Assembly (NCBI RefSeq): GCF_017349295.1
Contig: NZ_JAFMPK010000032.1
Span: 1-45,451 of the forward strand
DNA: 45,451 bases
Source: Myceligenerans salitolerans
GTDB taxonomy: Bacteria > Actinomycetota > Actinomycetes > Actinomycetales > Cellulomonadaceae
Direction of reading: 5' to 3'
The position numbers and the translations under genes were made by a program. Each line of letters starts with the position of its first letter. Position 1 is the first letter of the stretch. Below, in pieces: positions 10,330-36,582 of this stretch. Below the pieces are notes generated by a model that saw only the letters and a program-made list of their open reading frames with translations, was not told where the DNA came from and made no database searches.

Positions 10330-11106
10330 TCATTTGCGTGCGGGGCGTGGGCGCCGGGTGAGCAGCGGGTCGCGGCCGTGCGGACGGTCGACGGGATGGA
10401 TGGCGTCCAGCGCCCGCGACAGCGCGGCCTGCGTGACGCCGGACTTCTCCCCCGTCTGCAGGGCCGCGATCATCTGGTCGGCCGCGACGCGCAGGGGGAT
10501 GCCGACCTCGCCGGCCGCGTCGCGCAGCAGCTGCTCCGCCGCGCTGTCCCCGATCCCGCGGACGGCCGATATCACGCCCTTGGCCTGTTCGATCACGGCG
10601 CGGCTGACGAAGGCGTGCTGCACGACCGACGCCGCGCGGCGGTCGAGCGCCTCCTTCTGCACGGGGGTCACGTCGACCACGTATCCGGCGATCTCCGGTG
10701 TGCCCGCGGGTGTGTTCCGCCGACCCTGCCCGACCACGACGAGCGACCGTGTCCGGCCGTCGTGGCCCACGATGCGGTGCCCGCAGGCGAACGGGCGCCC
10801 GGCGCGCAGGGCGTCGCCGACGGCGCGGACCATGCGGGCCCGGTCGTCGGGGTGTTTGCGGGAGCTGAGTGCCTGGAGGCTCGGCTGCACCTCGTGCCGC
10901 TTCCAGCCGTGCATGGCGTACACCTCGTCCGACCACCACCAGTCGCCCGAGGCGAGCTCGACGCAGTAGCGGCCGATCAGCAGGTTGGTCCCGACGCCGA
11001 GGGCGTCGGTCAGTTCGCCGGCGGAGAGTGGCGGGAGCGTCCCGTTCGTGGCCCCGTTCTCGACGGCCGGACGGGATTGCTGGGCGGGGGACTTGACAGG
11101 GGACAT
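10330..11106 (-). CDS. PAS-ANTAR domain regulator (second of three)
   Basis: 258-aa protein with a PAS domain at residues ~45-150 (DWWWSDEVYAMHGW; KHPDDRARM) and an ANTAR domain at ~160-216 (AVIEQAKGVISAVRGIG). A basic, proline-rich tail ends in RRPRPARK. The N-terminal ~40 residues are low-complexity. The start ATG at 11106 is preceded by GAGAGG. A 7-bp hairpin sits directly upstream of that ribosome site, suggesting leader-RNA control. It converges on the PRC-barrel operon and diverges from the FAD/Rieske gene. It shares with its paralogues the 'WSDE.Y..HG' and 'HPD.R' PAS features. Confidence 0.9.
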   Translation of the reverse strand: MSPVKSPAQQSRPAVENGATNGTLPPLSAGELTDALGVGTNLLIGRYCVELASGDWWWSDEVYAMHGWKRHEVQPSLQALSSRKHPDDRARMVRAVGDALRAGRPFACGHRIVGHDGRTRSLVVVGQGRRNTPAGTPEIAGYVVDVTPVQKEALDRRAASVVQHAFVSRAVIEQAKGVISAVRGIGDSAAEQLLRDAAGEVGIPLRVAADQMIAALQTGEKSGVTQAALSRALDAIHPVDRPHGRDPLLTRRPRPARK

Positions 11107-12709: not shown

Positions 12710-12824
12710 CCTGCGCCGACATGGGGAGAGCACCGAGAAGCGCTTCAAGATGCGAGTGGTTCTCCGGCCTGAGAGCGTGAGTGAACCGGAAGAAGCCCGG
12801 TGACGACCACTTGTGGAGGTCACT

Positions 12825-14513
12825 GTGCGAGTTCTCGGGGTCAACGCTCTGTTCCATGATCCGTCGGCGGCGCTCGTCGTGGACGGGCACGTGGTGGCCG
12901 CGGCCGAGGAGGAACGGTTCTCCCGGCGCAAGCACGGCAAGCGCCCGGTGCCGTTCGCGGCCTGGGAGCTGCCCGAGCAGGCGATGCGCTGGTGCCTGGA
13001 GGTGGGCGGGCTCGAACCCGCCGACCTGGACGCGGTCGCCTACTCGTTCGATCCGGGCCTGGCCAAGCCGTCCGACGAGATGGGGCTGCCCGACCCGTGG
13101 GACTGGCTGCGCCTGCGCTACGCGGAACGGGCGCCGCAGTTCATCGCGACCGCGCTGCCCGGCCTGAGCCCCGCGACCGTGCGGTTCGTGCCGCACGAGG
13201 TGGCGCACGCCGCGTCGGCGGCACTCGCCTCGCCGTTCGACACGTGCAGCGTGATGTCGCTCGACGGGCGCGGTGAGCGGTCCTCCTACCTGGCGGGCCG
13301 GTACGACCACGGGCGGCTGGAGATGCTCGCGAGCCAGGACCTGCCGCACTCGCTCGGCCTGGTCTACGAGTCCCTGACGGAGCATCTCGGCTTCCTGCGC
13401 TCGAGCGACGAGTACAAGGTGATGGCCCTGGCCTCGTACGGCCGTCCCCGGTTCCTGGACCAGCTGCGCGACATCCTGCGCCCCACGCCCGACGGCGGAT
13501 TCGTCGCCGAGGCACCCGACTGGTCGCGCTGGGCGGCGGCGGCCGCTCCCGGAACCGCCGACGAGGTCATCGCCACCGGCACCCCGGCATCCGACCGGGC
13601 CGACCTGGCCGCCTCCGTCCAGGCACGCCTGGAGGAGGTACTCGTCGAGCTCGCCACGGCGCTGCACGCCCGGACCGGTGACCGGGCGCTCACCCTGGCC
13701 GGCGGCACCGCACTGAACTGCGTGGCGAACTCGCGGGTGTGGCGGGAGGCACCGTTCGACGAGGTGTGGGTGCAGCCCGCGGCCGGGGACTCCGGCACGG
13801 CGCTGGGCGCCGCCCTCCAGCTCACGGCCGAGGCAGGCGTCCCCGTCGTGCCCATGGAGTCGGCGGCCCTCGGCCGCTCCTGGTCCGACCGGGAGCTGTC
13901 GGACGCGCTGCGCGCCGCCCGGCTCCCGTTCACCACGCCCGCCGACCTGCCCCGGCAGGTCGCCGACGTGCTGGCGGGCGACGGCATCGTGGCCTGGTTC
14001 GACGGCCGCGCGGAGTTCGGGCCGCGCGCGCTGGGCCAGCGTTCCCTGCTGGCGCATCCCGGCCGGCGCGCCACCACGGAGAAGCTGAACGACGTCAAGG
14101 GACGCGAGCAGTTCCGGCCGGTGGCGCCCATGGTGCTGCTGGAGGACGCCCCGGACATCTTCTCGGGCGGGCCCGTCCCCAGCCCCTACATGCTGTTCGT
14201 CCACGACGTCGCACCCGAGTGGCGCAACCGGATTCCCGCGACCGTCCACGTCGACGGCACCGCGCGGATCCAGACGGTCGACGACTCCCAGCCGCGCCTG
14301 CAGGCGACGCTGCGCGCGTTCCGGGACCGCACCGGGCTGCCGGTGGTGGTGAACACCAGTCTCAACACCGCCGGAAGGCCGATGGTCGACAGCCCGCGCG
14401 ACGCGCTCGAGCTCTTCGGCTCCGCGCCCGTGGACCTGCTGGTGCTCGGGCCCCACCTGGTGCGCCGGGCGGACCTCGCGGCACTGCCCGCCCGAGAGGA
14501 GACGACCTCATGA
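12825..14513 (+). CDS. Carbamoyltransferase (NodU/TobZ/CmcH family)
   Basis: 562-aa enzyme that transfers a carbamoyl group from carbamoyl phosphate, via a carbamoyl-AMP intermediate, to a sugar hydroxyl. The N-terminal Kae1-like domain shows NALFHDPSAALVVDG, EEERFSRRKHGKRP, the metal-binding HEVAHAAS and LAGGTALNCVANSR. The C-terminal domain shows GRAEFGPRALGQRS, NDVKGREQFRPVAPM and VNTSLNTAGRPMVDSP. The GTG start at 12825 is supported by a perfect GGAGGT 4 nt upstream. It is the first gene of the nine-gene glycan operon, overlapping the next gene by 4 nt. In this context it probably carbamoylates a heptose or a heptose-containing glycan. Confidence 0.93.
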   Translation: MRVLGVNALFHDPSAALVVDGHVVAAAEEERFSRRKHGKRPVPFAAWELPEQAMRWCLEVGGLEPADLDAVAYSFDPGLAKPSDEMGLPDPWDWLRLRYAERAPQFIATALPGLSPATVRFVPHEVAHAASAALASPFDTCSVMSLDGRGERSSYLAGRYDHGRLEMLASQDLPHSLGLVYESLTEHLGFLRSSDEYKVMALASYGRPRFLDQLRDILRPTPDGGFVAEAPDWSRWAAAAAPGTADEVIATGTPASDRADLAASVQARLEEVLVELATALHARTGDRALTLAGGTALNCVANSRVWREAPFDEVWVQPAAGDSGTALGAALQLTAEAGVPVVPMESAALGRSWSDRELSDALRAARLPFTTPADLPRQVADVLAGDGIVAWFDGRAEFGPRALGQRSLLAHPGRRATTEKLNDVKGREQFRPVAPMVLLEDAPDIFSGGPVPSPYMLFVHDVAPEWRNRIPATVHVDGTARIQTVDDSQPRLQATLRAFRDRTGLPVVVNTSLNTAGRPMVDSPRDALELFGSAPVDLLVLGPHLVRRADLAALPAREETTS

Positions 14514-16054
14514 CGCCGTCGTACTCCGTCGTCGTGCCGACCATCGGGCGGCCCGTGCTCGGCAACCTGCTCACCTCGCTGGCCGCGGCGCTGACCGCGG
14601 GACCACGGCCGCTCGACGTCGTGGTGGTCGACGACCGCCCGTTCCCCCGCCGCGGCACGAACGCTCCCCTGGCCCTGGGGCCCGCACCGGTCGCGGGTGT
14701 CCGCGTGTTGCGTACCGGCGGGCGGGGCCCCGCCGCCGCGCGCAACGCCGGGCGGCGCACGACCCGCGCGGACTGGATCGCCTTCCTGGACGACGACGTC
14801 GTGGTCCCGCCGGACTGGGCGGAGGCGCTGGAGCGGGACCTGGCGGACGCCGGCCCCGAGGTGGCCGGCGTCCAGGGCCGGATCGTGGTCCCGCTGCCGG
14901 AGCACCGCCCGCCGACCGACCTCGAACGCAACACCGCGGGCCTGGAGCACGCGGCATGGCCGACGGCCGACCTGGCCTGCCGGCGCGCCGCCCTGGAGTC
15001 CGTGCACGGGTTCGACGAACGCTTCACCCGGGCCTACCGGGAGGACGCCGACCTCGCCCTGCGGCTGCGCGAGGCCGGCTGGAAGCTCGAGCGCGGTGCC
15101 CGGCACGTACGGCATCCGGTGCGGCCCGCCGGCAACCTGGCGAGTGTGCGGGCCCAGGCCGGCAACGCGGACGACGCGCTGCTGCGCGCCCTGCACGGAC
15201 GCCACTGGCGCCGGCGCACCGAAGCCGGCCGCGGGCGCCTGCCGTGGCACGCGGCCACCGTGGCGGCGGGACTGACGGCGCTGGGCGCCGGCCTGACCGC
15301 GGCCCGCTCCCCTGCCCGGCGGCCCGCGGGCGCCCGCGTGACCGCCGTCGTGGCCGGTGCCGCCTGGGCAGGCCTCACCGGCGCGTTCGCCCGCGAGCGC
15401 CTGGCTCCCGGCCCGCGGCCCGGCGACGAGGGTTTCGCCGCGGAGGTGGGGCGCATGCTCGTCACGAGCGCGCTGATCCCCTTCGCCGCGGTCGCGCATC
15501 GTGCCCGGGGGGCCTGGAGCTGGCGGGGCCGGGAGGTGCCCGCCTGGCCGCTGCCCGTGCGGGCCGTCCTGTTCGACCGTGACGGCACCTTGATCCACGA
15601 CGTGCCGTACAACGGTGATCCGCGGGCCGTGGAGCCACTTCCCGGTGCGCGGCGGGTGCTGGACCAGCTGCGCGCGCGCCGGCTGCGGGTGGGCGTGGTG
15701 TCGAACCAGTCGGGCATCGGCCGTGGCCTGCTGACGACGGCTCAGGTGGACGCCGTCGACGACCGGGTGCGTGAGCTGCTGGGCCCCTTCGGTACCTGGC
15801 AGCGCTGTCCGCACCACCCGGAGGACGGGTGCACGTGCCGCAAGCCGGAGCCCGGCCTGGTGCTGCGGGCGGCGGCGGAGCTCGGGGTGCTTCCCGCGGA
15901 GTGCCTCGTGGTGGGCGACATCGGGGCGGACGTCGACGCGGCGATCGCGGCGGGCGCCCGGAGTGTTCTGGTTCCGACGGCGATGACCCGGCGGGAGGAG
16001 CTGTCCTCCGCGCCGGTGGTCGCCTCGACGCTCGACGAGGCGGTGCCGCTATGA
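14510..16054 (+). CDS. Fusion: GT2 glycosyltransferase plus GmhB-like heptose-bisphosphate phosphatase
   Basis: 514-aa two-enzyme protein. Residues 1 to ~250 are a family 2 glycosyltransferase (YSVVVPTIGRP, DDDVVVPPDW, later RAYREDADLALRLREAGW). Residues ~245-345 hold two hydrophobic stretches that may anchor it. Residues ~350-514 are a HAD phosphatase of the D,D-heptose-1,7-bisphosphate type: FDRDGTL with Asp356 and Asp358, SNQSGIGRG, the zinc loop Cys433, His435, Cys441, Cys443 (CPHHPEDGCTCRKP), and VVGDIGADVDAA. No internal start is needed since the frame is continuous. GmhB is usually a free ~190-aa enzyme. ATGA overlaps with both neighbours place it inside the operon. Confidence 0.9.
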   Translation: MTPSYSVVVPTIGRPVLGNLLTSLAAALTAGPRPLDVVVVDDRPFPRRGTNAPLALGPAPVAGVRVLRTGGRGPAAARNAGRRTTRADWIAFLDDDVVVPPDWAEALERDLADAGPEVAGVQGRIVVPLPEHRPPTDLERNTAGLEHAAWPTADLACRRAALESVHGFDERFTRAYREDADLALRLREAGWKLERGARHVRHPVRPAGNLASVRAQAGNADDALLRALHGRHWRRRTEAGRGRLPWHAATVAAGLTALGAGLTAARSPARRPAGARVTAVVAGAAWAGLTGAFARERLAPGPRPGDEGFAAEVGRMLVTSALIPFAAVAHRARGAWSWRGREVPAWPLPVRAVLFDRDGTLIHDVPYNGDPRAVEPLPGARRVLDQLRARRLRVGVVSNQSGIGRGLLTTAQVDAVDDRVRELLGPFGTWQRCPHHPEDGCTCRKPEPGLVLRAAAELGVLPAECLVVGDIGADVDAAIAAGARSVLVPTAMTRREELSSAPVVASTLDEAVPL

Positions 16055-17199
16055 CTTCGAGATCGGCTCTGACGAACGCTTCTCCCGTGCCGGACGGTGC
16101 GGCGGACCGGCAGGTGCGGGTGCTGGCCGTGCGGCTCGACAGCGACGGGGACGTCCTGGTGACCGGGCCGGCGATCCGTGCGCTGGCCGCGACCTACGGT
16201 CAGGTGGACCTCCTGGTCTCCGGGGCGGGGACGCAGGCCGCCGCGCTGCTGCCCGGGGTGACGGAGACGCTCCGGTTCGACGCGCCCTGGTCGGGCACGC
16301 ACCCGCCGCGCGTGTCGCCGGAGGCGGTCCTCGACCTCGTGGCCGGGCTGATCGCCCGGCGCTACGACCTGGCGGTGATCTTCACGTCGTTCCATCAGTC
16401 GCCCCTTCCGATGGCGCTGCTGGCGCGCCTCGCGGGCGTGCGGCAGGTCGTCGCGACGAGCGAGGACTATCCCGGTTCGCTGCTGGACGTGCGCCATCAC
16501 CGGCCGCCGGGGCTGCACGAGGTGGAGGCGTGCCTCGACCTGGCCGCCCGGGCCGGTGCCCAGCTACCGCCGGAGGACGACGGGCTGCTCGCCGTGCACG
16601 ACGCGCTGCCCCCGGTCCCGGCGTGGCCCGCACCGCGCGGCGCCGGCGACACGGGCGGCCGCGACGGTGACACGGTCGTGCTCCACCCCGGCGCCTCGGT
16701 TCCCGCCCGGGCACCCCGGCCCGAGGACTCCCGGGCGTTCGCCGAGCGGCTGGCGCACGACGGCTGGGACGTGCTGGTCACGGGGACGGCCATGGAGCGT
16801 GAGCTGACGTCGTACGTCGCGGGGGGCCACGCCGTGGACCTCGGCGGGCGCACGAGCCTGGCCGAGCTGGCGGCCGTGCTGCGGACGGCGGCGTGCGTGG
16901 TGGTGGGGAACACGGGCCCGGCACACCTCGCGGCGGCCGTCGGGACCCCGGTGGTGAGCCTGTTCGCGCCGGTCGTCCCTCTCGAACGGTGGTCACCGTA
17001 CGGCGTGCCGCTGTTCGTGCTGGGCGACCAGGGCGCCGCCTGCCGGGACACCCGGGCACGCACGTGTCCCGTCTTCGGCCATCCCTGTCTCGCGTCGGTG
17101 ACGCCGGACCAGGTGTCGGACGCGGTGGCGCGGCTGGCCCGCCCGCCGGCCGGTGCAGCGGCCGGCGGCCGGCGGCCGGCCGTGGGGAGGTGGTTCTGA
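16051..17199 (+). CDS. GT9 heptosyltransferase-type glycosyltransferase 1
   Basis: 382-aa GT-B enzyme. The N-terminal half has VRVLAVRLDSDGDVLVTGPAIRAL, the GT9 pattern R.D..GD...T.P...L. The C-terminal half has VVLHPGAS and VVVGNTGPAHLAAAVGTPVVSLFAP, the donor-binding signature of the family. Family members move heptose from an ADP-heptose-type donor. Unlike the classical lipopolysaccharide enzymes, it works here in what looks like a Gram-positive cell, so the acceptor must be something else. Sits between the GT2-GmhB fusion and a GT4-like gene with 4-nt overlap upstream and a 1-nt overlap downstream. A GC-rich 7-nt tandem repeat encodes the Gly/Arg-rich C-terminus. Confidence 0.9.
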   Translation: MTSRSALTNASPVPDGAADRQVRVLAVRLDSDGDVLVTGPAIRALAATYGQVDLLVSGAGTQAAALLPGVTETLRFDAPWSGTHPPRVSPEAVLDLVAGLIARRYDLAVIFTSFHQSPLPMALLARLAGVRQVVATSEDYPGSLLDVRHHRPPGLHEVEACLDLAARAGAQLPPEDDGLLAVHDALPPVPAWPAPRGAGDTGGRDGDTVVLHPGASVPARAPRPEDSRAFAERLAHDGWDVLVTGTAMERELTSYVAGGHAVDLGGRTSLAELAAVLRTAACVVVGNTGPAHLAAAVGTPVVSLFAPVVPLERWSPYGVPLFVLGDQGAACRDTRARTCPVFGHPCLASVTPDQVSDAVARLARPPAGAAAGGRRPAVGRWF

Positions 17200-18206
17200 T
17201 GAGGATCCTGTTGTGGCACGTCCACGGCTCATGGACGACCGCTTTCGTGCAGGGCGAGCACGAGTACCTGGTACCCGTGCTGCCCGGACGGCCCGCGGAC
17301 GGCAGGGGCCGGGCCCGCACCTGGGACTGGCCGTCCTCGGTCCGCGAGGTGACTCCCGGCCGGCTGCGCCGCGCGGTCGAGGACGGCGAGGTGGACGTGG
17401 TGCTGCTGCAGCGCCCCCACGAGGCCCGGCTGCTGCGCGAGTGGACCGGGCGGACCGCGGGCGGCGACCTGCCGGCGGTGTATCTCGAGCACGACGCGCC
17501 GGGCGGGCCCGCGGCCGCGACGCGCCACCCGCTGGCGGACGTCGACGCCGTCGCGGACGGCCGCGTCCCGATCGTGCACGTGACCGCCTTCAACGCCCTC
17601 ATGTGGGACACCGGTACCGCGCGCACCACCGTGATCGACCACGGCGTGCCCGACCCGGGACACCGCTACACGGGCGAGCGCGAGCACCTCGCGGCGGTGG
17701 TCAACGAGCCCGTCCGCCGCCGGCGCGCGGCGGGCACGGACATCCTCCTGTGCCTGGCACGGGAGATCCCCGCCGAGGTGTACGGGATGGGGACGGAGCG
17801 GCTCGCCGAGCAGCTGGCTCCGCTCGGCCCGGTCGCGGCCGGGACGGCGGGGCGGCTCCACGACTTGCCCCAGCCGGAGCTGCACGAACGGCTCCCCGGG
17901 GCGCGCCTCTACCTGCATCCGTACCGCTGGACGAGCCTCGGGCTCGCGCTGCTGGAGGCGATGGCGCTGGGCATGCCCGTGCTGGCGCTGCCCGTCACGG
18001 CGGCGTACGAGGCCGTGCCCCCGGAGGCCGGCGTCCTGAGCGCCGACCCGGACGAGCTGGCCGCGGTCGCACGCCGCTGGCTGAACGACCCGGCGGAAGC
18101 CGCCGCCTACGGCAAGTCCGCCCGGGAGCACGTGCTGCGCCGCTACCCGCTGGACCTCTTCCTCGACCGCTGGTCCACGCTGCTGACACAGGAGGTGTCC
18201 CCATGA
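17199..18206 (+). CDS. GT4-like glycosyltransferase (GT-B fold)
   Basis: 335-aa protein beginning MRILLWHVHGSWTTAFVQG. The C-terminal donor-side region reads YRWTSLGLALLEAMALGMPVLALP, the E-x7-E-like pattern of family 4 glycosyltransferases, followed by a typical PDELAAVARRWLNDP helix. The ATG shares its first base with the last base of the upstream stop codon. It overlaps the next glycosyltransferase by 4 nt. Donor and acceptor are not predictable; context suggests assembly of the heptose-containing glycan. Confidence 0.85.
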   Translation: MRILLWHVHGSWTTAFVQGEHEYLVPVLPGRPADGRGRARTWDWPSSVREVTPGRLRRAVEDGEVDVVLLQRPHEARLLREWTGRTAGGDLPAVYLEHDAPGGPAAATRHPLADVDAVADGRVPIVHVTAFNALMWDTGTARTTVIDHGVPDPGHRYTGEREHLAAVVNEPVRRRRAAGTDILLCLAREIPAEVYGMGTERLAEQLAPLGPVAAGTAGRLHDLPQPELHERLPGARLYLHPYRWTSLGLALLEAMALGMPVLALPVTAAYEAVPPEAGVLSADPDELAAVARRWLNDPAEAAAYGKSAREHVLRRYPLDLFLDRWSTLLTQEVSP

Positions 18207-19504
18207 GGATCGCCATGATCTCCGAGCACGCCAGTCCGCTCGCCACCCTGGGCGAGGCGGACGCCGGCGGGCAGAACGTGCATGTCGCCGCGCTGGCGAA
18301 GGGCCTCGCGGCCGAGGGCCACCGCGTCGACGTCTACACGCGGCGTGACGACCCGGACCTTCCGGAGCGGGTGCCTCTGACGCACGGCGTGGACGTCGTG
18401 CACGTCGACGCCGGTCCGCCCGAGCCGCTGCCGAAGGACGAGCTGCTGCCCTGGATGGACCGGTTCGGCGACGATCTTGCGGCGCGTTTCGCCGACCCGG
18501 GCTCCCGTCCCGACGTGCTGCACGCCCACTTCTGGATGTCCGGCCTCGCGGCCCTGCGGGCGACCCGGGGCGGGGCTCGCACCGGCTCCGGCCGGGTCCC
18601 GGTGGTGCAGACCTTCCACGCGCTCGGCTCCGTCAAGCGCCGCCACCAGGGCGCGGCCGACACCAGCCCGGCCGAGCGCATCGGGCTGGAGAGCAGGCTG
18701 TGCCGCGAGGTCGACCTCGTCGTGGCGACGTGCCGGGACGAGATCCGTGAACTGCACCGGCTGGGCGCGACGGACGACCGGGTCGAGATGGTGCCCTGCG
18801 GCGTCGACCTGCGCACGTTCGCGCCCGGCCCGGGCCCGGCCCGCCCCGCCGACGACCCGCTGCGGGTCCTGTCCCTGGGCCGGCTCGTGGAACGCAAGGG
18901 GGTCGCCACCGTCGTGGAGGCTCTCGCGCGCCTCGCCGAGCGCGGGAACGCGCCGGTGGAGCTCCTGGTCGCCGGCGGACCGCCGGCCGCGGAGCTCGAC
19001 CGCGACGCGGAGGTGCGGCGCCTGCGGGACCTGGCCGCCCGTGCCGGGGTCGCCGGCCGGGTGCGGTTCCTGGGCGCCGTGGCGCACGAGGACATCCCGG
19101 ACCTCATCCGGGGCGTCGACGTCGTCGCCTGCACCCCGTGGTACGAGCCGTTCGGCATCGTGCCGCTGGAGGCCGGGGCGTGCGGGCGGCCGGTGGTCGC
19201 CTCCGCGGTGGGCGGGATGCTCGACACCGTGGCGCACGACCGCACCGGCATCCTCGTGCCACCGCGCGATCCGGCCGCCGTCGCCGCAGCTCTCGGAAGG
19301 CTCTCGGACCGCCGGTTCCGCCGGCGTCTGGGCGCAGCCGCGCGGGTCCGCGCGGAACGCCGGTACGGCTGGGCGGAGATCGCCCGGCAGACGTCCGGCG
19401 CCTACGCCGGGGTCGCCGGTTCCGCGGCTCCCCGGCACCCCGTCACCGCACGCACCACCGAGACGCGTGCGCCACTGGCCACCGCGGCAGGAGGTACCCG
19501 ATGA
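18203..19504 (+). CDS. GT4 family glycosyltransferase
   Basis: 433-aa GT-B enzyme. The N-terminus has GEADAGGQNVHVAALAKGLA, a glycine-rich donor/acceptor loop like MshA and sucrose-phosphate-synthase-type enzymes. The C-terminal half has LSLGRLVERKG and YEPFGIVPLEAGACGRPVVAS, with the E-x7-E retaining-GT motif and the GG-loop AVGGMLDTV. GGAGGT lies 6 nt before the ATG. Retaining transfer from a nucleotide-sugar is expected; sugar unknown. Operon member with 4-nt overlaps on both sides. Confidence 0.9.
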   Translation: MRIAMISEHASPLATLGEADAGGQNVHVAALAKGLAAEGHRVDVYTRRDDPDLPERVPLTHGVDVVHVDAGPPEPLPKDELLPWMDRFGDDLAARFADPGSRPDVLHAHFWMSGLAALRATRGGARTGSGRVPVVQTFHALGSVKRRHQGAADTSPAERIGLESRLCREVDLVVATCRDEIRELHRLGATDDRVEMVPCGVDLRTFAPGPGPARPADDPLRVLSLGRLVERKGVATVVEALARLAERGNAPVELLVAGGPPAAELDRDAEVRRLRDLAARAGVAGRVRFLGAVAHEDIPDLIRGVDVVACTPWYEPFGIVPLEAGACGRPVVASAVGGMLDTVAHDRTGILVPPRDPAAVAAALGRLSDRRFRRRLGAAARVRAERRYGWAEIARQTSGAYAGVAGSAAPRHPVTARTTETRAPLATAAGGTR

Positions 19505-20175
19505 ACTCCGCGCTCGACGACCTGACCACCGAATCCGACGCCTCCGGCGGACACCGCTGGCTCGACGAGCACCGCAGCGACCTCACGCTGGGGCTCGACC
19601 ACCTGACCGCCTCCGTGGACCGCATCGAGTCCTGGGGCCGGGAGCTCGCCGACCGGATGCTGGACGGGCACCGGCTGCTGGTGGCCGGCAACGGCGGCAG
19701 CGCCGCCGAGGCGCAGCACCTGACGGCCGAGCTCGTGGGCCGGTTCGAGGGCGAGCGGGTTCCGCTCGCGGCGATCGCCCTGCACGCCGAGACGTCCAGC
19801 CTCAGCGCCATCGTCAACGACTACGGCCAGGACGAGATGTTCGCCCGGCAGGTCGCGGCGCACGGCCGCCCGGGCGACGTGCTGCTGTGCCTCTCGACGT
19901 CCGGGGCGAGCGCCAACGTGCTGGTCGCCGCGCGCCGCGCACGTGAGCTGGGCCTGACGACGTGGGCGATGACCGGTCAGGCGCCCAATCCGCTCACGGC
20001 GCTGTGCGACGACGTCCTCGCGGTCCCCGCGAAGTCCGGTGCCGCCGTGCAGGAGGTCCACCTCGTCGCGGTCCACGCGCTGTGCGCGACACTGGACGCG
20101 CGGGTCGCCCAGCGCTCCCGCTCCCACGTCCGCGCGCGGCGAACCACCCCGCCGTCGGTCGGGACGCGAGCATGA
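19501..20175 (+). CDS. gmhA: Sedoheptulose-7-phosphate isomerase (GmhA)
   Basis: 224-aa SIS-domain enzyme that converts sedoheptulose 7-phosphate to D-glycero-D-manno-heptose 7-phosphate, the first heptose-pathway step. Visible signatures are AGNGGSAAEAQHLTAELVGRF, the phosphate-binding LSTSGASANVL, and VQEVHLVAVHALC carrying the late Glu and His used for proton transfer in GmhA. About 30 extra residues at the C-terminus (basic, Pro-rich) exceed the usual ~190 aa. It lies directly before HldE with a 4-nt overlap; having both genes side by side makes the GmhA assignment firmer than the SIS fold alone. Confidence 0.9.
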   Translation: MNSALDDLTTESDASGGHRWLDEHRSDLTLGLDHLTASVDRIESWGRELADRMLDGHRLLVAGNGGSAAEAQHLTAELVGRFEGERVPLAAIALHAETSSLSAIVNDYGQDEMFARQVAAHGRPGDVLLCLSTSGASANVLVAARRARELGLTTWAMTGQAPNPLTALCDDVLAVPAKSGAAVQEVHLVAVHALCATLDARVAQRSRSHVRARRTTPPSVGTRA

Positions 20176-21692
20176 GCGGCCCGGCCGGCGCCCGCGGCGG
20201 CTCCGCGCGCGCCTACCTCGCTCCCGTACCGGGCGACGCACCCGCGCGGCCGCGGGTCGCGGTGGTCGGAGACGTCCTGCTCGACCGGGACATCGACGGC
20301 ACCGTCACCCGCCTCGCCCCGGACGCGCCCGTCCCCGTCGTCGACGTGACGACCGTGCGCCACAGCCCCGGGGGTGCGGGCCTCGCCGCCCTGCTGTGCG
20401 CCCAGCGGGCCGACGTCGTCCTCGTCGCGCCGCTGGCCGACGACACCGACGGCCGCGAACTGCGCCGCCGGCTCGAGGGAATCACCCTGGTGCCGCTCGG
20501 CCACGAAGGGCCCACCCGCCGCAAGACCCGCGTGCGCAGCGACGGGCAGGGCATCGTCCGTGTCGACGAGGGCGGCCCCGGCACCCCGACCGGCACGACC
20601 CCGTCGGCCGTGACACGGGTGCGCGACGCCCTGGCCGGGTGCGACGCCGTGCTCGTCGCCGACTACGGCGGCGGCACCACCCGCGACCCGCACCTGCGCG
20701 AGCTGCTCACCGAAGCGGCCGCGCGCGTACCGCTCGTGTGGGACCCGCACCCCCGGGGCGGTGCTCCCGTACCGGGTGCCGCCCTGGTGACGCCCAACGC
20801 CGCCGAGGCCGAGCGCGCCGCCCAGGACCTGCCCGGGGCCGGCGCCACCACGCCGCTCCCCGATCTGGCCGAGGTGCTGCGCCGCGCGTGGTCCGCACGA
20901 GCCGTCAGCGTCACCGCGGGCGAACGCGGCGCGTTCGTCGCCGCCCGCCCGCACGACGGCGACGACGGCGAGCCCGCCGCCGTCCGGCACCTGCCCGCGC
21001 GGCCCGCGCACGGGGCCGACTCCTGCGGGGCCGGCGACCGCTTCGCCGCGACGGTCACCGAACGGCTCGCCGGCGGCGACGAGCCGGCCACCGCCGTCCA
21101 GGAGGGCGTGCTCGCCGCGAGCGCCTGGGTCGCCTCGGGCGGCGCCGACGGCTTCCGCCGCGCTCAGGAGGACGGGCAGCAGCGACCCGAGCCGGACCCG
21201 GCGACGTCCCTGGAGGAGCTCGGCGCGCGGCTGCGCGCCGCCGGCGGCGTCCTCGTGGCGACCAGCGGCTGCTTCGACCTGCTGCACGCCGGCCACGTCA
21301 CCATGCTCGACGCCGCCCGGCAGCTCGGCGACCACCTCGTGGTGCTCGTCAACTCCGATCGTTCCGTGCGCCGCCTCAAGGGACCCGAGCGGCCGCTCGT
21401 GCCGTTGGCGGAGCGGCTGCGCGTCCTGGAGAGCCTCGCGTGCGTCGACGCGGCCGTCGTGCTGGAGTCCGACGAACCGTCCGACGCCGTCGCGGCCCTC
21501 CGGCCCGACATCTGGGCGAAGGGCGGCGACTACACCGTCGCGGACCTGCCCGAGGCCGCCGTCGTGCGCGCCTACGGCGGACAGGTCGTCACGCTGCCCT
21601 TCCTGCCCGGCCACTCCACCACCCGGCTCGTCGACCGTGTCCGGGAGTCCGAGTCCGTCACCGCCACACCGACCATGAGGAGGTCATCATGA
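20172..21692 (+). CDS. hldE: Bifunctional heptose-7-phosphate kinase / heptose-1-phosphate nucleotidyltransferase (HldE-like)
   Basis: 506-aa two-domain enzyme. The N-terminal ribokinase/PfkB domain (~residues 25-325) starts VAVVGDVLLDRDIDG and ends with the anion-hole motif GAGD, catalytic Asp289. The C-terminal domain (~355-490) is a nucleotidyltransferase with TSGCFDLLHAGH (HxGH at 372-375), LKGPERPLVPL and WAKGGDYT, all typical of HldE. It phosphorylates heptose 7-phosphate at C1 and, after GmhB removes the 7-phosphate, adds AMP (or another NMP). Same domain order and nearly the same length as enterobacterial HldE. Overlaps GmhA and the SDR gene by 4 nt each. Confidence 0.91.
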   Translation: MSGPAGARGGSARAYLAPVPGDAPARPRVAVVGDVLLDRDIDGTVTRLAPDAPVPVVDVTTVRHSPGGAGLAALLCAQRADVVLVAPLADDTDGRELRRRLEGITLVPLGHEGPTRRKTRVRSDGQGIVRVDEGGPGTPTGTTPSAVTRVRDALAGCDAVLVADYGGGTTRDPHLRELLTEAAARVPLVWDPHPRGGAPVPGAALVTPNAAEAERAAQDLPGAGATTPLPDLAEVLRRAWSARAVSVTAGERGAFVAARPHDGDDGEPAAVRHLPARPAHGADSCGAGDRFAATVTERLAGGDEPATAVQEGVLAASAWVASGGADGFRRAQEDGQQRPEPDPATSLEELGARLRAAGGVLVATSGCFDLLHAGHVTMLDAARQLGDHLVVLVNSDRSVRRLKGPERPLVPLAERLRVLESLACVDAAVVLESDEPSDAVAALRPDIWAKGGDYTVADLPEAAVVRAYGGQVVTLPFLPGHSTTRLVDRVRESESVTATPTMRRSS

Positions 21693-22441
21693 CCGCGACC
21701 ACGACCGGCACGTCGCAGGGCACCGTGCCCGTGCCCGCCACCGCTTCGCTCACGCCCCGTGCCCTCGGCACCGTCTTCGTCACCGGAGGGGCGTCCGGCC
21801 TCGGTGCCGCGCTCGTCGACGTGCTGGGGGCGTCCGGGGGCCGGCCCGCCGTCGTGGACGTCGTCGAGCCGCCGGGCGACGTGCCCTTCGCGGCCGCGGA
21901 CCTCGGGGACCCCGGCGCCGCCCAGGCCGCCGTCGACCAGCTGGTGGAACAGGTGGGCCCGCCCGACGCGGTGGTGACCGCCGCCGGCATCGACGCCTGC
22001 GGGCCGCTGCTGGGGATCGACCCGGACAAGTGGGAACAGGTGGTCCGCGTCAACCTGTTCGGCACCGTCTCCGTCGTCCGTGCGGCGCTGCCGTACCTGG
22101 AGGAGCGTCGCGGCACCGTGGTCACGGTCGCCTCGACCCTGGCGCTGCGCGGCGCCGGGGACGCGACCGCGTACTGCGCGTCCAAGTGGGGGATCCGCGG
22201 TTTCAGCCAGGCGCTCGCGGCCGAGTACGCGGGCCGGGTCGGGGTGACGTGCCTCATCCCCGGTGGCATGCGGACCCCGTTCTTCGACGGGCGCACCGAG
22301 CAGTACAAGCCCGGCCCGGACGCCGACCTCAACGATCCGGCCGCGACGGCCGCGGCCGTGGTGGCCGCGCTGACGCAGCCTCCGGGCAGCGAGATCCGCG
22401 AGATGCTGGTCATGGCCTCGGGTGAGGCGTCGTGGCCGTGA
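21689..22441 (+). CDS. Short-chain dehydrogenase/reductase in the heptose operon
   Basis: 250-aa classical SDR. The cofactor motif is VTGGASGLG, the acidic residue after strand 2 (VVDVVE) favours NAD(H), and the active site is a Ser in VASTLALRG with Tyr/Lys in YCASK. GAGGAGGT precedes the ATG, inside the HldE reading frame. It is not HldD: that epimerase is an extended SDR of ~310 aa. It may oxidise or reduce a heptosyl intermediate, but this is inferred from operon position only. Confidence 0.87.
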   Translation: MTATTTGTSQGTVPVPATASLTPRALGTVFVTGGASGLGAALVDVLGASGGRPAVVDVVEPPGDVPFAAADLGDPGAAQAAVDQLVEQVGPPDAVVTAAGIDACGPLLGIDPDKWEQVVRVNLFGTVSVVRAALPYLEERRGTVVTVASTLALRGAGDATAYCASKWGIRGFSQALAAEYAGRVGVTCLIPGGMRTPFFDGRTEQYKPGPDADLNDPAATAAAVVAALTQPPGSEIREMLVMASGEASWP

Positions 22442-22466
22442 TCGGGCGGGCCGTCCGGGGCCGGTC

Positions 22467-23498
22467 GTGACCGTCCTGGCGCTGCGGGCGCTGGGGCTGG
22501 GTGACGCGCTGACGGGCGTGGCGGCACTGCGCGGGGTGCGGCGGGCGTGGCCCGGGCACCGGCTGGTGCTCGCCGCGCCCCAGCCGGTCGGCCAGTGGCT
22601 GACCGACCTCGGCGTGGTGGACGCGGTGCTCCCCACGCCCGGGCTGACACGGCTGCCCTGGCCGTGGAGCGGGCCGGGCGGCGCCCAGGACGCACCCGGA
22701 TGCCTCGCCGTGAACCTGCACGGCAGCGGGCCGCAGAGCCACCGCGTGCTGCAGGCGACGCGGCCGGACGCCCTGATCGCCTTCGCCAGCCCGGCCGCAG
22801 GGCATCCTGGCCCGGCATGGGACGAGCACGAGCACGAGGTACTGCGCTGGTGCCGCCTGGTGAGCGGTGTGGGCGGCCGCTGCGGTCCGGAGGATCTCCG
22901 CCTCGGCGCGGCCGACGCGCCGGACGCGCACGACGGCCCGGACGCCGGACGCACCCGGGTGGTCGTCCACCCGGGTGCGTCCGCCGGGGCCCGGCGCTGG
23001 CCCGCCCCCCGCTGGGCGCAGGTCGTCAGGGCGCTGGTGGCGCAGGACTGCGACGTCACGCTGACGGGCTCCCGCGCGGAGCAGCGGCTCTGCCGGCGTG
23101 TGCGCGCGGCAGGGCCCGCCGACGGGGTGCGGGACGACTCGGGGCGGCTCGACCTGCCCGCGCTGGCGGGGCTCGTGTCACGCGCGCACCTGGTGGTCAG
23201 CTCCGACACCGGGGTCGCCCACCTCGCGACGGCCTACGGCACGCCGTCGGTCACGTTGTTCGGGCCCACCCCGCCCGATCTCTGGGGCCCGGCGATCGAC
23301 CGGTCGCGGCACCTCGTGGTCTGGCACGGCGAGCCGGGGGCGCCACCCCGGGACGCGAACGCCGAGCGTCTCGACCCCGCGCTCGCCCAGGTGACGGCCG
23401 AGGAGGTGCTGGCCGCGTGCGAGGCGGCGCTCAGGCGGCCTCCTGCCCCCGCCGCCGGAACCACCCCACCGTCCGGGACAGCCCGTCCGGCCACGTGA
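22467..23498 (+). CDS. GT9 heptosyltransferase-type glycosyltransferase 2
   Basis: 343-aa GT-B protein. It begins VTVLALRALGLGDALTGVAALRG, the GT9 N-terminal pattern, and carries VVHPGASAGARRWP and SSDTGVAHLATAYGTPSVTLFGP near the C-terminus, the donor-site signature. The GTG start at 22467 is chosen because it places the family's first strand at the N-terminus; the ribosome site is weak, and 25 nt separate it from the SDR stop. It is the second GT9 enzyme of the operon and diverged from the first. Its last 68 nt overlap the 3' end of the convergent epimerase gene. Confidence 0.88.
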   Translation: MTVLALRALGLGDALTGVAALRGVRRAWPGHRLVLAAPQPVGQWLTDLGVVDAVLPTPGLTRLPWPWSGPGGAQDAPGCLAVNLHGSGPQSHRVLQATRPDALIAFASPAAGHPGPAWDEHEHEVLRWCRLVSGVGGRCGPEDLRLGAADAPDAHDGPDAGRTRVVVHPGASAGARRWPAPRWAQVVRALVAQDCDVTLTGSRAEQRLCRRVRAAGPADGVRDDSGRLDLPALAGLVSRAHLVVSSDTGVAHLATAYGTPSVTLFGPTPPDLWGPAIDRSRHLVVWHGEPGAPPRDANAERLDPALAQVTAEEVLAACEAALRRPPAPAAGTTPPSGTARPAT

Positions 23499-24432
23499 CG
23501 CCCGGCTCCCAGCCCAGCTCCGTCCGGGCCAGGGTGATGTCGGGGCACCGCATCCCCGGGTCGTCGACCGGCCGCTCGATGTGGTCGATCCGTGAGCGAG
23601 ACCCCGTCGCGTCGATCACGTCCTCGGCGATCCGGCGGACCGTGAGCTCGTGCGGGTTACCCAGGTTCATCGGGCCGGGGTGGCCGCTGCGGGCAAAGGC
23701 CAGCAGGCCCGCCACCATGTCGTCGACGTAGCAGAGCGAACGGGTCTGCGACCCGTCCCCCGCCACGGTGAGCGGCTCGCCGGCGAGCGCCTGGCGGATG
23801 AACGTGGGCACGACGCGGCCGTCGTGCTCCCGCATCCGGGGCCCGTAGGTGTTGAAGATGCGCACGATGCCGGTGTCCGTGCCGAGGGTGCGGCGGTAGC
23901 CCGACACGAGCGCCTCGGCGAACCGCTTGGACTCGTCGTAGACGCTGCGCGGCCCGACGCTGCTCACGTTGCCCCAGTACTCCTCGCGCTGCGGATGCAC
24001 CTGCGGGTCGCCGTAGACCTCGGACGTGGAGGCGAGCACGAGACGCGCGCCGTGCTCCTGGGCCAGGTCGAGCGCGGCGCGGGTGCCGCGCGACCCCACG
24101 TCGAGCGTCTCCAGCGGGTGTTCCAGGTAGTCGACGGGCGAGGCCGGGGAGGCCAGGTGCATGACGAGGTCGACGCCGGGTCGCAGGGCGGCGCGCACGG
24201 CGGGCGACGTGAAGCCGTCCTCCGCGATGTCGGACCGGACGAACCGCAGGGCGCCGCGTCCGCGCAGGGCACCGAGGTTCTCGATGGCTCCGGTCAGGAG
24301 GTTGTCCACGCACACGACCTCGGCACCCGAGTCGACGAGCGCCTCGCAGAGCCTGCTCCCGACAAATCCTGCCCCACCCGTGACGACGGCCCGTGTCACG
24401 GACACCCGCGGGAAGTACGTCTGGCTGCTCAT
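23431..24432 (-). CDS. UDP-glucuronate decarboxylase-type NAD-dependent epimerase/dehydratase
   Basis: 333-aa extended SDR. Motifs are VTGGAGFVGSRL, cofactor Asp in CVDNLLTG, STSEVYGDP, YWGNV, YDESKRFAEAL (Tyr/Lys pair) and FNTYGPRM, followed by AGDGSQTRSLCYVDD. The HPQ/YWGNV/GPRSVYDE combination is typical of UDP-xylose synthase (UDP-glucuronate decarboxylase), making UDP-xylose from UDP-glucuronate with bound NAD. Start ATG 24432 with AAAGGA upstream. Encoded opposite to the heptose operon and overlapping its last gene by 68 nt. It could supply a pentose for the same glycan. Confidence 0.85.
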   Translation of the reverse strand: MSSQTYFPRVSVTRAVVTGGAGFVGSRLCEALVDSGAEVVCVDNLLTGAIENLGALRGRGALRFVRSDIAEDGFTSPAVRAALRPGVDLVMHLASPASPVDYLEHPLETLDVGSRGTRAALDLAQEHGARLVLASTSEVYGDPQVHPQREEYWGNVSSVGPRSVYDESKRFAEALVSGYRRTLGTDTGIVRIFNTYGPRMREHDGRVVPTFIRQALAGEPLTVAGDGSQTRSLCYVDDMVAGLLAFARSGHPGPMNLGNPHELTVRRIAEDVIDATGSRSRIDHIERPVDDPGMRCPDITLARTELGWEPGVTWPDGLSRTVGWFRRRGQEAA

Positions 24433-27009: not shown

Positions 27010-27858
27010 TCACCACGGCGCGAGCAGCGCCCGCAGCGCCATCACGTCGGCCGGGACCGGGCGGCGCCGTCGCAGGGCGGCCGGCGCCTCCCGGAGCCCG
27101 TGCAGCACGCCGGCCCGGTGGCTGGGGCTCATGGCCGCCACCCGGCGGATCTCCCCCACCGCGTCGCGCCACGGCAGGCGCATCAGCGCGCTGAGCGTCG
27201 CGGCGCGCGCGATCCCGCGCCGTCGCCGGTCGGGCGAGTGCCTGCTCGGCGACGGATGGTGGTGCACCACGACGTCGTCCAGGTAGCTCATCGCCCAGCC
27301 GGCGGCGGCGAGGTCGAGCGCGAGACGCTCCTCCTCGCCCGGGAACCGCACCACCGGGTCGAACCCGCCCACGGCGAGGAAGGCGCTCCGGCGCACCATC
27401 GCGGCGCACGCCACGAAGCCCAGGAGCGGCTCCCCGGGCAGCCGCGGGTCGCGCGGCAGGGGCGAGCGGGCCATCGCGGCGCTGATCGGGTCGGTGCGTT
27501 CCTCGGGCCCGACGAGGATCCGGGCGCACACCAGCCCGAGGCGCGGGTGCGCCGCCAGGGTGCGGGCCGCCTCGCGCAGAGCCCCCGAGGCCCACCACGA
27601 GTCGTCGTCGGCGAACGCGACGAACGGCGTGGTCGCCGCCTCCACGCCGACGGTCCGGGCCATGGCGCCGAGGTTGCGCGGCAGCCGGATCACGGCCGCG
27701 TCGGGCCGGGCCGCGGCCACCGCGTCGGGACTGGCGTCGGTCGATGCGTTGTCCACCAGGATGACCGGGGCTCGGTGCCGCGGCAGCGAGGCGAGGAGGT
27801 CGTCCTGGCGGTTCCTCGTCGCGACCACGACGGTCACGCGGTCGTCCTCGGGCTCCAT
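27010..27858 (-). CDS. GT2 family glycosyltransferase
   Basis: 282-aa GT-A enzyme. It begins VTVVVATRNRQDDLLASL, contains VDNASTD, the metal-binding FADDDSWW and later GFVACAAMVRRSAFLAVGGFD, then FPGEEERLALDLAAAGW for acceptor binding. GAGGAGG precedes the ATG at 27858. The gene follows PAS-ANTAR 3 by 28 nt on the same strand, so it may be controlled with it. The Arg-rich C-terminal part (~190-282) has no known domain. Confidence 0.88.
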   Translation of the reverse strand: MEPEDDRVTVVVATRNRQDDLLASLPRHRAPVILVDNASTDASPDAVAAARPDAAVIRLPRNLGAMARTVGVEAATTPFVAFADDDSWWASGALREAARTLAAHPRLGLVCARILVGPEERTDPISAAMARSPLPRDPRLPGEPLLGFVACAAMVRRSAFLAVGGFDPVVRFPGEEERLALDLAAAGWAMSYLDDVVVHHHPSPSRHSPDRRRRGIARAATLSALMRLPWRDAVGEIRRVAAMSPSHRAGVLHGLREAPAALRRRRPVPADVMALRALLAPW

Positions 27859-27886: not shown

Positions 27887-28573
27887 TCAGCTGTCGACCG
27901 GCACCTCCGGGTCCTTCAGGAACGCGTCGATCGCCTCGCGGGTCGGGAACACCGTGACGTCGGGCCCGGCGATCAGCTCCACCAGCCTGTCCGCGAGGTC
28001 TCGCACGGCGATGTTCGTCCGGTTCGACGCCTCTCGCAACAGCTCGAACGCCTCCAGCTCCTCCACGCCGTAGACCGCCATCAGCATGCCCTTGGCCTGC
28101 TCGATCACGGCGCGGTGCTCCGCCGACGCCTTGATGGACGCCGTGGCGTCCCGCTGCGCCGCCGCGCGGTGGGAGTCGGTGACGTCGATGAAGTACCCGA
28201 TGAGTTCCGTGACCCGGCCGGTGGCAGGGTCACGCCGGCCCTGTCCCGTGACGGCCAGGGTGCGCGTCGAACCATGGGCGTCACGGATGCGGTGCACGGA
28301 GCTGAACGTCTGCCCCGTCTCCGCGGCCCGGCGCAGCACGCCGTCGACCCGCCCGCGGTCGTCGGGGTGCTTGTGGGAAAGCATGAGCGGTGTCGTCGGC
28401 ACGATCTCGCCCGGCTCGAAGCCGTGCATCAGATAGACCTCGTCCGACCACGCCCACTCCCCCGTGGCGAGATCGAGACGGTAGCGTCCGACCGGGGGGC
28501 GAGTCCCCCCGTCGAGCGCCTGTTCGACCTTCCCCTCGAGTGGAGAACCGCCCGAAGGCTGTACAGAGGTCAC
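27887..28573 (-). CDS. PAS-ANTAR domain regulator (third of three)
   Basis: 228-aa protein with a PAS domain (~residues 26-132; EWAWSDEVYLMHGFEPGE, KHPDDRGRV) and an ANTAR domain (~140-200; AVIEQAKGMLMAVYGV). The final ~25 residues (VTVFPTREAIDAFLKD) are extra. The start is taken as GTG 28573, preceded by AGGAGG; an upstream ATG frame of 59 more codons lacks a ribosome site. It precedes the GT2 gene. It is closer to the second paralogue than to the first in the 'W.WSDEVY.MHG' and 'AVIEQAKG' stretches. Confidence 0.88.
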   Translation of the reverse strand: MTSVQPSGGSPLEGKVEQALDGGTRPPVGRYRLDLATGEWAWSDEVYLMHGFEPGEIVPTTPLMLSHKHPDDRGRVDGVLRRAAETGQTFSSVHRIRDAHGSTRTLAVTGQGRRDPATGRVTELIGYFIDVTDSHRAAAQRDATASIKASAEHRAVIEQAKGMLMAVYGVEELEAFELLREASNRTNIAVRDLADRLVELIAGPDVTVFPTREAIDAFLKDPEVPVDS

Positions 28574-28882
28574 GATTCCTCCTGGGATGAATTTCGTGAA
28601 TGGCCTACATGACCGGACAGAAGGGTACGACACCCGCGACACAACGAGCGTATCCGATCCAGCGCGGCTTGACTCCCGGGTGAAGGAACATAGGGCGACG
28701 AGTATATGGTGCGCCGATCGTGAGCCCTCGGTGCCGAGGCGGCACACCACATCGCCCGCGCTGCTGCTGCGGCGGCTGCGGCGGCGGCTGCGGTCTCGCC
28801 CTGCGCGGTTCGCGCGATGCCCGGCAGCGCGACCCCGTGACGTCGCCCGGAGCGGCCCGGCGGGGCCGCTCCGGGCGACGGC
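28574..28882. other. Intergenic region with regulatory side of PAS-ANTAR 3 and a strong hairpin
   Basis: 309 bp without a gene. Its left part holds the leader of the third PAS-ANTAR gene. Its right part holds the 17-bp hairpin that ends the pyruvate-oxidase-like gene. TTGACT followed 16 nt later by TAGGGC (28669-28696) reads as a promoter-like pair on the + strand, but no gene follows it in that direction. Confidence 0.55.
28842..28879 (-). terminator. Perfect 17-bp stem-loop terminator
   Basis: 17 nt at 28842-28858 (starting GTCGCCCGGAGC) pair without mismatch with 28863-28879, leaving a 4-nt loop GGCG. It begins 4 nt past the stop of the pyruvate-oxidase-like gene on that gene's strand. 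No U-run is seen. Confidence 0.8.
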
Positions 28883-36124: not shown

Positions 36125-36582
36125 CCCGCCCCGCCGCCCCCGCGACGCCGTCCGCCCGGACGCGAGGCCGCACGGCGAGCCGGCCTCGCACGGCGGCCGG
36201 CACGCTCGTCCGGGCGGCGGCGTCGCTCGTCGTCGCCGCGGCGGTCCTGACCGGATGCGCCGACGCCGGCGGGCCGCCACCCGTGGAGCTGCGGCTCCGC
36301 GCCTCGGGGTTCGACCCGGTGCGCCTCGAGACCGCCGCGGGCGCGGAGGTGCGCTTCGTCAACGACTCCGGCCGCCCGCAGCGGATCGTGTCCGCCGTGC
36401 TCGGCGACGGTGACGGCGTCGCCGTCCCGGCGGGAGCGGAACCCGTCGACTCGGGCCGTCTCGTGGCGGGGGCCGCCCACGCGAGACGGCTCGACGTGCC
36501 GGGCGAGTACGTGGTCGAGGCGGTCCCGGCCGACGGCGGCACGCGCGCGGTCGCCACGATCCTGGTGGAGGAGGCCTCATGA
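36121..36582 (+). CDS. Cupredoxin-like lipoprotein lacking copper ligands
   Basis: 153-aa lipoprotein. An Arg-rich start and hydrophobic stretch end in lipobox LTGC. The mature domain (VELRLRASGFDPVRLETAAGAEVRFVN) has a cupredoxin-fold pattern, but the positions for the type-1 copper ligands read RPQRIV instead of a His, and there is no Cys or Met in the C-terminal loop. It may be a structural or binding partner. GTG start overlapping the GMC gene by 4 nt; 4-nt overlap with oxidase subunit II downstream. Confidence 0.72.
   Translation: MTRPAAPATPSARTRGRTASRPRTAAGTLVRAAASLVVAAAVLTGCADAGGPPPVELRLRASGFDPVRLETAAGAEVRFVNDSGRPQRIVSAVLGDGDGVAVPAGAEPVDSGRLVAGAAHARRLDVPGEYVVEAVPADGGTRAVATILVEEAS

What the first reader, a model, noticed from the sequence alone, without database searches (positions are those of the whole stretch)
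12825..24432. Complete heptose-activation and transfer operon with carbamoylation in a Gram-positive-looking genome
GmhA, HldE and a GmhB domain together make nucleotide-activated D,D-heptose, and two GT9 enzymes plus GT2/GT4 enzymes could transfer it. These are hallmarks of lipopolysaccharide core synthesis, which a Gram-positive cell does not have, so the product must be another heptose-containing glycan, glycolipid, glycoprotein or secreted molecule. A carbamoyltransferase leads the operon and a UDP-xylose-type enzyme sits at its end, suggesting a carbamoylated heptose/pentose polymer. No HldD is present, so the heptose should keep the D,D form. Gene identities rest on visible motifs; the product is inference.
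Basis: partly seen in the sequence, partly recalled or inferred. Interest (0 to 1): 0.78.

Follow-up and report, generated by a model that had tools for sequence, protein, structure and literature searches.

The report
Actinobacterial cell-wall heptose glycan operon
A Gram-positive actinobacterium carries a full enzyme set for making and attaching a seven-carbon sugar best known from Gram-negative endotoxin; it is a rearranged relative of a known but chemically unsolved Streptomyces cell-wall stress operon.

Summary
A tight + strand operon (12825-23498) encodes an O-carbamoyltransferase, a GT2-GmhB fusion, two GT9 and two GT4-type glycosyltransferases, GmhA, HldE and an SDR. The UDP-xylose-synthase-like gene (23431-24432) lies on the opposite strand and converges, so it is not in the operon. 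Closest relatives are Promicromonosporaceae; the genome shows no LpxC and no HldD above cut-off.

It is not an unknown system. With the published sigma-E promoter of the Streptomyces coelicolor cwg operon (sco6179-6190) as a search pattern I reached that operon in an unnamed Streptomyces genome with an exact match: ten cwg positions match the window's genes at 47-66% identity, nine of them in the same order. A window GT2 (27010-27858, -) resembles the last two cwg genes. Differences: cwgC and cwgD are fused, the cwgA equivalent is moved and inverted, an SDR is added, and no sigma-E-like motif lies upstream.

Most likely product: a carbamoylated envelope glycan or glycolipid with D,D-heptose and perhaps xylose. 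My searches found no structure in print, and I saw no polymerase or exporter in the cluster. New member of a known kind, moderate interest.

The parts
12737..12757 (+). Upstream element conserved in Promicromonosporaceae; function unknown (promoter or leader?)
   Evidence: Alignment of the window with L005, L006, L008, L009, L010; weak or absent in Georgenia L011, L012; only match in the genome at up to 2 mismatches; no Rfam match
12825..14513 (+). O-carbamoyltransferase (cwgB position); GTG start at 12825 behind GTGGAGGT
   Evidence: 66% to L101
14510..16054 (+). GT2 glycosyltransferase fused to a GmhB-like heptose-bisphosphate phosphatase (cwgC plus cwgD)
   Evidence: fused in 27 loci, separate in 19
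16051..17199 (+). GT9 glycosyltransferase, heptosyltransferase-like (cwgE position)
   Evidence: 57% to L101
17199..18206 (+). GT4-like glycosyltransferase (cwgF position)
   Evidence: 56% to L101
18203..19504 (+). GT4 glycosyltransferase, MshA-like but under the MshA cut-off (cwgG position)
   Evidence: 56% to L101
19501..20175 (+). GmhA, sedoheptulose-7-phosphate isomerase (cwgH)
   Evidence: 61% to L101
20172..21692 (+). HldE, heptose-7-P kinase / heptose-1-P nucleotidyltransferase (cwgI); NTP-choice motif FLPGHSTT
   Evidence: 49% to L101
21689..22441 (+). Short-chain dehydrogenase/reductase, no counterpart in the cwg operon of L101
   Evidence: in 39 of 57 full-flank loci
22467..23498 (+). 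GT9 heptosyltransferase-like (cwgJ position); a start at 22422 is also possible
   Evidence: 47% to L101
23431..24432 (-). UDP-glucuronate decarboxylase / UDP-xylose synthase-like (cwgA equivalent), convergent, outside the operon
   Evidence: 66% to L101
27010..27858 (-). GT2 glycosyltransferase resembling cwgK and cwgL; membership inferred
   Evidence: Pfam GT2; tblastn of L101 cwgK-like 51% over 196 aa and cwgL-like 46% over 284 aa

Best explanation
This is the local version of the actinobacterial cwg ('cell wall glycan') operon. [quoted passage not shown] the HldE kinase half makes the 1,7-bisphosphate; the GmhB domain, fused to a GT2, removes the 7-phosphate; the HldE nucleotidyl half makes ADP-D,D-heptose, which stays D,D because HldD is lacking. 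The GT9 pair transfers heptose to a growing oligosaccharide built with the GT2 and GT4 enzymes; UDP-xylose from the neighbouring UXS may add a pentose, and the carbamoyltransferase caps a sugar hydroxyl. The product is most likely an envelope glycan or lipid-linked glycan. Shown: gene content, intact frames, motifs, orthology by position and sequence to the cwg operon, absence of LpxC and of HldD above cut-off. Inferred: the four enzyme activities, ADP as the nucleotide, the acceptor, the carbamoylated sugar, the envelope location. Unknown: how it leaves the cell and whether it is a polymer.
For: Gene identities. The published cwg promoter (PMC6767563, passages) matches exactly once in 392 Streptomyces genomes (G642) and with one mismatch in 3. 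Behind the exact match (L101): UXS-CarbT-GT2-GmhB-GT9-GTx-GT4-GmhA-HldE-GT9, all like the window's genes (47-66% identity), then two GT2s, with a divergent polysaccharide deacetylase in front; 147 bp from promoter to the first start codon, the distance printed in the paper. The labels seen in print fit at E (heptosyl transferase, PMC5882110), H (phosphoheptose isomerase) and I (bifunctional synthase/transferase) (PMC5839063). cwg is a sigma-E target induced by vancomycin, hence the envelope inference. The GT2-GmhB fusion ties a glycosyltransferase to heptose activation; in the HldE tree the fused and split forms are separated by a single change (28 and 19 rows, 0 of 500 shuffles as low). UDP-glucuronate supply: two UDP-sugar dehydrogenases over cut-off.
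Against: No enzyme or glycan has been assayed. The printed label of SCO6182 (cwgD) is 'putative dehydratase', not a phosphatase; I read this as a HisB-type mislabel (inference). No sigma-E-like motif upstream of the window's CarbT or UXS, and few in other Streptomycetaceae: 1 of 16 loci strict, 2 of 16 loose, with start codons estimated from alignments. Of 4 loci fetched behind the promoter, L103 keeps only the GT2, part of GmhB and the GT4, and L102 has GT9a and HldE in two pieces in different frames. The SDR has no place in the scheme. No exporter or polymerase seen. HldE is in only 93 of 394 genomes of the class, and the one other genome of the same family lacks it at E <= 1e-40, so the glycan is dispensable.
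Confidence: 0.7

Rival explanations
1. The operon makes a secreted specialised metabolite (a carbamoylated heptose glycoside or antibiotic, as septacidin and hygromycin B use heptoses) rather than an envelope glycan.
For: Septacidin in Streptomyces draws on this pathway (PMC11461863; PMC10948575, passages). CarbT is closest to antibiotic carbamoyltransferases (TobZ, novobiocin, GdmN). Patchy distribution, 93 of 394 genomes. No polymerase or wall-ligation gene seen nearby.
Against: Gene order is kept across many families and genera, unusual for an antibiotic; the Streptomyces counterpart is under envelope-stress sigma-E. No PKS, NRPS, resistance or efflux gene among the window ORFs scanned.
Confidence: 0.15
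2. The heptose is attached to proteins (surface glycoprotein) by the GT9 pair.
For: Heptosylated autotransporters are known in Gram-negative bacteria (PMC11573728).
Against: No dedicated target protein gene seen in the locus; four or more further glycosyltransferases and a carbamoyltransferase suggest an oligosaccharide. Not tested directly.
Confidence: 0.07
3. The enzymes have drifted and handle another sugar phosphate, so no heptose is made.
For: Heptose equivalog cut-offs are not reached; GT9a has GNTGPAHLA where GT9b has DTGVAHLA.
Against: All four steps are present together and near-invariably linked (GmhA, GmhB in 55 of 57 loci); diagnostic motifs of GmhA, HldE and GmhB intact; both HldE halves match heptose or related enzymes.
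Confidence: 0.05
4. LPS core synthesis: the host is Gram-negative or the contig is a contaminant.
For: GmhA, HldE, GmhB and GT9 are textbook LPS core genes.
Against: No LpxC in the genome while 4 of 14 controls have it; no HldD over cut-off; the HldE tree places the window with Promicromonosporaceae at full support.
Confidence: 0.01

Closest known systems
Streptomyces coelicolor cwg operon, sco6179-6190 (sigma-E target, putative cell wall glycan)
   Same: UXS, CarbT, GT2, GmhB, GT9, GT4-like, GT4, GmhA, HldE, GT9 all matched at 47-66% identity in L101; a K/L-type GT2 also nearby
   Different: GT2 and GmhB fused; UXS inverted and downstream; SDR inserted between HldE and the second GT9; one K/L-type GT2 instead of two, displaced by about 3.5 kb; no sigma-E-like motif found
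ADP-D,D-heptose pathway of LPS core synthesis (GmhA-HldE-GmhB, WaaC/WaaF GT9)
   Same: Same four activation steps and GT9 transferases by sequence
   Different: No HldD over cut-off, no LpxC; carbamoyltransferase, GT4s, SDR and UXS attached
[quoted passage not shown] papers not held)
   Same: Actinobacterial NDP-heptose supply
   Different: Here GmhA and HldE are separate genes in a glycosyltransferase operon

Membership tests
cwg operon (Streptomyces sigma-E cell wall glycan operon) | Ordered set UXS-CarbT-GT2-GmhB-GT9-GTx-GT4-GmhA-HldE-GT9 with terminal GT2s | tested here: met
   Nine of ten positions in the same order, UXS displaced and inverted, one K/L-type GT2 displaced
cwg operon (Streptomyces sigma-E cell wall glycan operon) | sigma-E-type promoter upstream of the operon | tested here: not met
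   No AAC-N15..19-[CG]GTC in 12710-12824 or upstream of the UXS. This is a regulatory feature of the Streptomyces operon, so it lowers the claim of shared control, not of shared pathway
cwg operon (Streptomyces sigma-E cell wall glycan operon) | Product is a cell wall glycan | not testable with these tools
   Only predicted in Streptomyces too (PMC6767563, passages)
ADP-D,D-heptose biosynthesis | Isomerase, kinase, phosphatase and nucleotidyltransferase all encoded with intact motifs | tested here: met
   activity not testable
ADP-D,D-heptose biosynthesis | STTR5 motif (F/L)XXGRSTT, hallmark of NTP-promiscuous enzymes (PMC11573728) | tested here: not met
   Window has FLPGHSTT; R at that column in 71 of 84 aligned rows, H 6, Y 6, M 1. 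ADP-heptose is therefore the likelier product here; promiscuity is not excluded
LPS core heptose system | Lipid A pathway (LpxC) in the genome | tested here: not met
   No match to PF03331
LPS core heptose system | HldD epimerase | tested here: not met
   Best of 5 matches 87 bits against a cut-off of 274.6; some heptose systems lack HldD anyway (recalled)
Septacidin-like heptose antibiotic cluster | Tailoring genes of the nucleoside antibiotic beside the heptose genes | not tested
   Cluster sequences were not compared; papers not held

The most novel reading that the evidence does not exclude
About a quarter of the sampled actinobacterial class carries a heptose pathway whose end product is a so far unrecognised class of carbamoylated D,D-heptose (and xylose) envelope glycan or glycolipid, made under wall stress in some lineages. 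Its precursor would make these Gram-positive bacteria producers of NDP-heptose, the ligand of the vertebrate immune sensor ALPK1, often CDP- or UDP-heptose too, since 71 of 84 relatives have the promiscuity motif that the window's own lineage has lost.
Probability: 0.4. Interest if true: 0.7.

Novelty: new member of a known kind. Interest (0 to 1): 0.42.

Why it matters
The cwg operon has been used for two decades as a readout of envelope stress, yet the papers I could see name its product only as a predicted cell wall glycan. Recognising that its conserved core is a complete heptose activation and transfer pathway with a carbamoyltransferase gives a testable chemical prediction across many actinobacterial families. 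It would also explain why heptose genes occur in bacteria that lack LPS, and would make such bacteria candidate sources of ALPK1-activating sugars.

Tried and rejected
LPS or contamination: rejected. A single operon including the UXS: rejected, opposite strand. Short leader peptide upstream of CarbT: rejected by eye from the alignment, because the frame is not kept in L008. Known regulatory RNA upstream: no Rfam match apart from one tRNA. Membrane anchoring of the GT2-GmhB protein: a simple hydropathy scan found no helix in the GT2 tail, so I do not claim it. Heptose in actinobacterial wall glycans in print: searches and cwg searches gave no structure; the library lacks most subscription papers, and the original cwg paper (Hong et al. 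2002) was seen only as a citation. Sigma-E motif as a general mark of the operon: not borne out (1 of 16 strict, 2 of 16 loose). No structure prediction was run; it would not settle the substrate.

Full report
What is there. The window is a whole contig (C27) of a 4.58 Mb genome in 49 contigs, 99.97% complete. On the + strand nine genes follow one another, six of the eight junctions overlapping by 4 bases, one sharing a single base, and the last depending on the start chosen for GT9b: carbamoyltransferase 12825-14513, GT2-GmhB fusion 14510-16054, GT9 16051-17199, GT4-like 17199-18206, GT4 18203-19504, GmhA 19501-20175, HldE 20172-21692, SDR 21689-22441, GT9 22467 (or 22422)-23498. The UDP-xylose-synthase-like gene is on the other strand, 24432-23431, its 3' end overlapping that of the last GT9 gene. 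Family and structure searches support each name; the heptose-specific NCBIfam cut-offs are missed, by little for the nucleotidyltransferase half (174 of 181.5 bits) and by more elsewhere. Motifs of GmhA (GNGGSA, QHLTAEL, VQEVHL), HldE (GDVLLDR, CGAGDRF, GCFDLLHAGH, KGGDY) and GmhB (DRDGTL, zinc-type CPHHPEDGCTCRKP) are present (the meaning of the motifs is recalled).

Host. The best relatives of HldE lie in Myceligenerans (85% identity) and Promicromonospora, and a tree of 84 HldE rows places the window with Myceligenerans pegani inside Promicromonosporaceae with full support. No LpxC is found, while 4 of 14 control genomes ring. TIGR02197 (HldD) finds 5 weak matches, none over the cut-off; the cut-off is passed by 2 of 14 controls.

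Conservation. In 57 of 80 fetched loci with at least 9 kb on both sides of HldE, GmhB, GT4 and GmhA are found in 55, GTx and GT9a in 54, GT9b in 53, SDR in 39, GT2 and CarbT in 35, UXS in 31 (E < 1e-20; the 80 are the best of 176). Two layouts stand out: one with CarbT and GT2, mostly with UXS too (window, Streptomyces, Georgenia, Mycolicibacterium, Nocardioidaceae and others), and one of 17 loci without hits for CarbT, GT2 and UXS, mostly Microbacteriaceae. In the class, 93 of 394 sampled genomes and 46 of 138 genera have HldE at E <= 1e-40; this count includes more distant paralogues as well.

Identification with cwg. Papers seen in passages describe a 12-gene operon sco6179-6190 (cwg), a vancomycin-induced sigma-E target predicted to make a cell wall glycan, and print its promoter, 147 bp before the start codon (PMC6767563). 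Gene labels seen: cwgE 'GT1 putative heptosyl transferase' (PMC5882110), cwgH 'putative phosphoheptose isomerase', cwgI 'putative bifunctional synthase/transferase', cwgD 'putative dehydratase' (PMC5839063). A divergent neighbour, SCO6178, is labelled putative deacetylase or glycoside hydrolase (PMC13011467). I searched 392 Streptomyces genomes with that promoter: one exact match and three with one mismatch. Behind the exact match, L101 carries, in order, homologues of the window's UXS (66%), CarbT (66%), GT2 (54%), GmhB (59%), GT9a (57%), GTx (56%), GT4 (56%), GmhA (61%), HldE (49%), GT9b (47%), then two GT2 genes, with a divergent polysaccharide deacetylase in front and 147 bp from promoter to start (from the positions). 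L104 has the same set; L102 too, with GT9a and HldE in two pieces in different frames, so its row in the tree is unreliable; L103 keeps only GT2, part of GmhB and GT4.

What differs in the window. GT2 and GmhB are one protein: so in 27 of 84 loci, separate in 19 (all Streptomycetaceae or L101, L102, L104), on different strands in 1, and not scorable in 37. On the HldE tree the two states are parted by one change (28 rows with the window, 19 rows; 0 of 500 shuffles as low; 37 rows unlabelled). An SDR is added. The UXS is moved. One GT2 like cwgK/cwgL (51% over 196 aa, 46% over 284 aa) lies at 27010-27858 on the minus strand. No sigma-E-like motif lies upstream of CarbT or of the UXS; nor is it general in Streptomycetaceae (1 of 16 strict, 2 of 16 loose). 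Instead a 21-base element at 12737-12757 is conserved in five Promicromonosporaceae loci and occurs once in the genome.

Nucleotide. Two commentaries on work by Tang and colleagues (PMC11461863 and PMC11573728, part 1 of 2 of each text) give (F/L)XXGRSTT as the hallmark of heptose nucleotidyltransferases that also use CTP and UTP. The window has FLPGHSTT; its sister L004 also has H. Of 84 aligned rows 71 have R, 6 H, 6 Y, 1 M at that column (many of these rows have Y, not F or L, at the first position). So the window enzyme is likelier ADP-specific, while most relatives look promiscuous; this is a prediction from a motif.

How it works. Activation to ADP-D,D-heptose follows from established enzymology of the four families. 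Transfer by the GT9 pair is likely; the other GT donors are unknown. The GT4 is like the MshA group (TIGR03449, 244.5 of 462.5 bits; PDB 3c48 and 7qsg). UDP-glucuronate for the UXS can come from two UDP-sugar dehydrogenases found over cut-off. Carbamoylation of a hydroxyl follows from the TobZ/GdmN relation. I saw no flippase, polymerase, ABC exporter or LCP protein among the ten proteins or the 20 further window ORFs (not every ORF of the window was scanned). The product may therefore be a lipid-linked oligosaccharide handled by genes elsewhere.

Verdict. Observation confirmed with two corrections; interpretation partly supported; a new, rearranged member of a known and chemically unsolved operon type. 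[quoted passage not shown]

Noticed in passing
L019-L021, L026, L028, L037, L042, L050, L053, L055, L064, L066, L067, L070, L074, L078-L080: 18 of 80 loci, mostly Microbacteriaceae and Actinomycetospora, show a second HldE-like stretch (35-50% identity) in the same locus; in the three checked it covers nearly the whole bidomain protein.
   Followed up: partly
84 HldE rows, column of window HldE residue 481: R of the STTR5 promiscuity motif in 71 of 84 relatives but H in the window and Myceligenerans pegani.
   Followed up: partly
window 12737-12757: 21-base element upstream of the carbamoyltransferase, conserved in Promicromonosporaceae and unique in the genome.
   Followed up: partly
window 10330-11106 (-) and 27887-28750 (-): Two PAS-ANTAR proteins, putative RNA-binding regulators, stand on either side of the glycan locus.
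   Followed up: no
L103: A Streptomyces locus with the cwg promoter (one mismatch) but only GT2, part of GmhB and GT4 left: an apparently decayed or deleted operon.
   Followed up: no
L056: Record titled UNVERIFIED_ORG Bacillus sp. AZ43 carries an actinobacterial-type operon; its HldE sits among Actinomycetota in the tree, so the label is probably wrong.
   Followed up: no
window 36579-44082: Cytochrome oxidase subunits II (with cytochrome c) and I, followed by cytochrome c assembly genes with a fused thioredoxin-like domain.
   Followed up: no
window 36-929 (-): Integrase-core (rve) transposase-like gene at the contig end.
   Followed up: no
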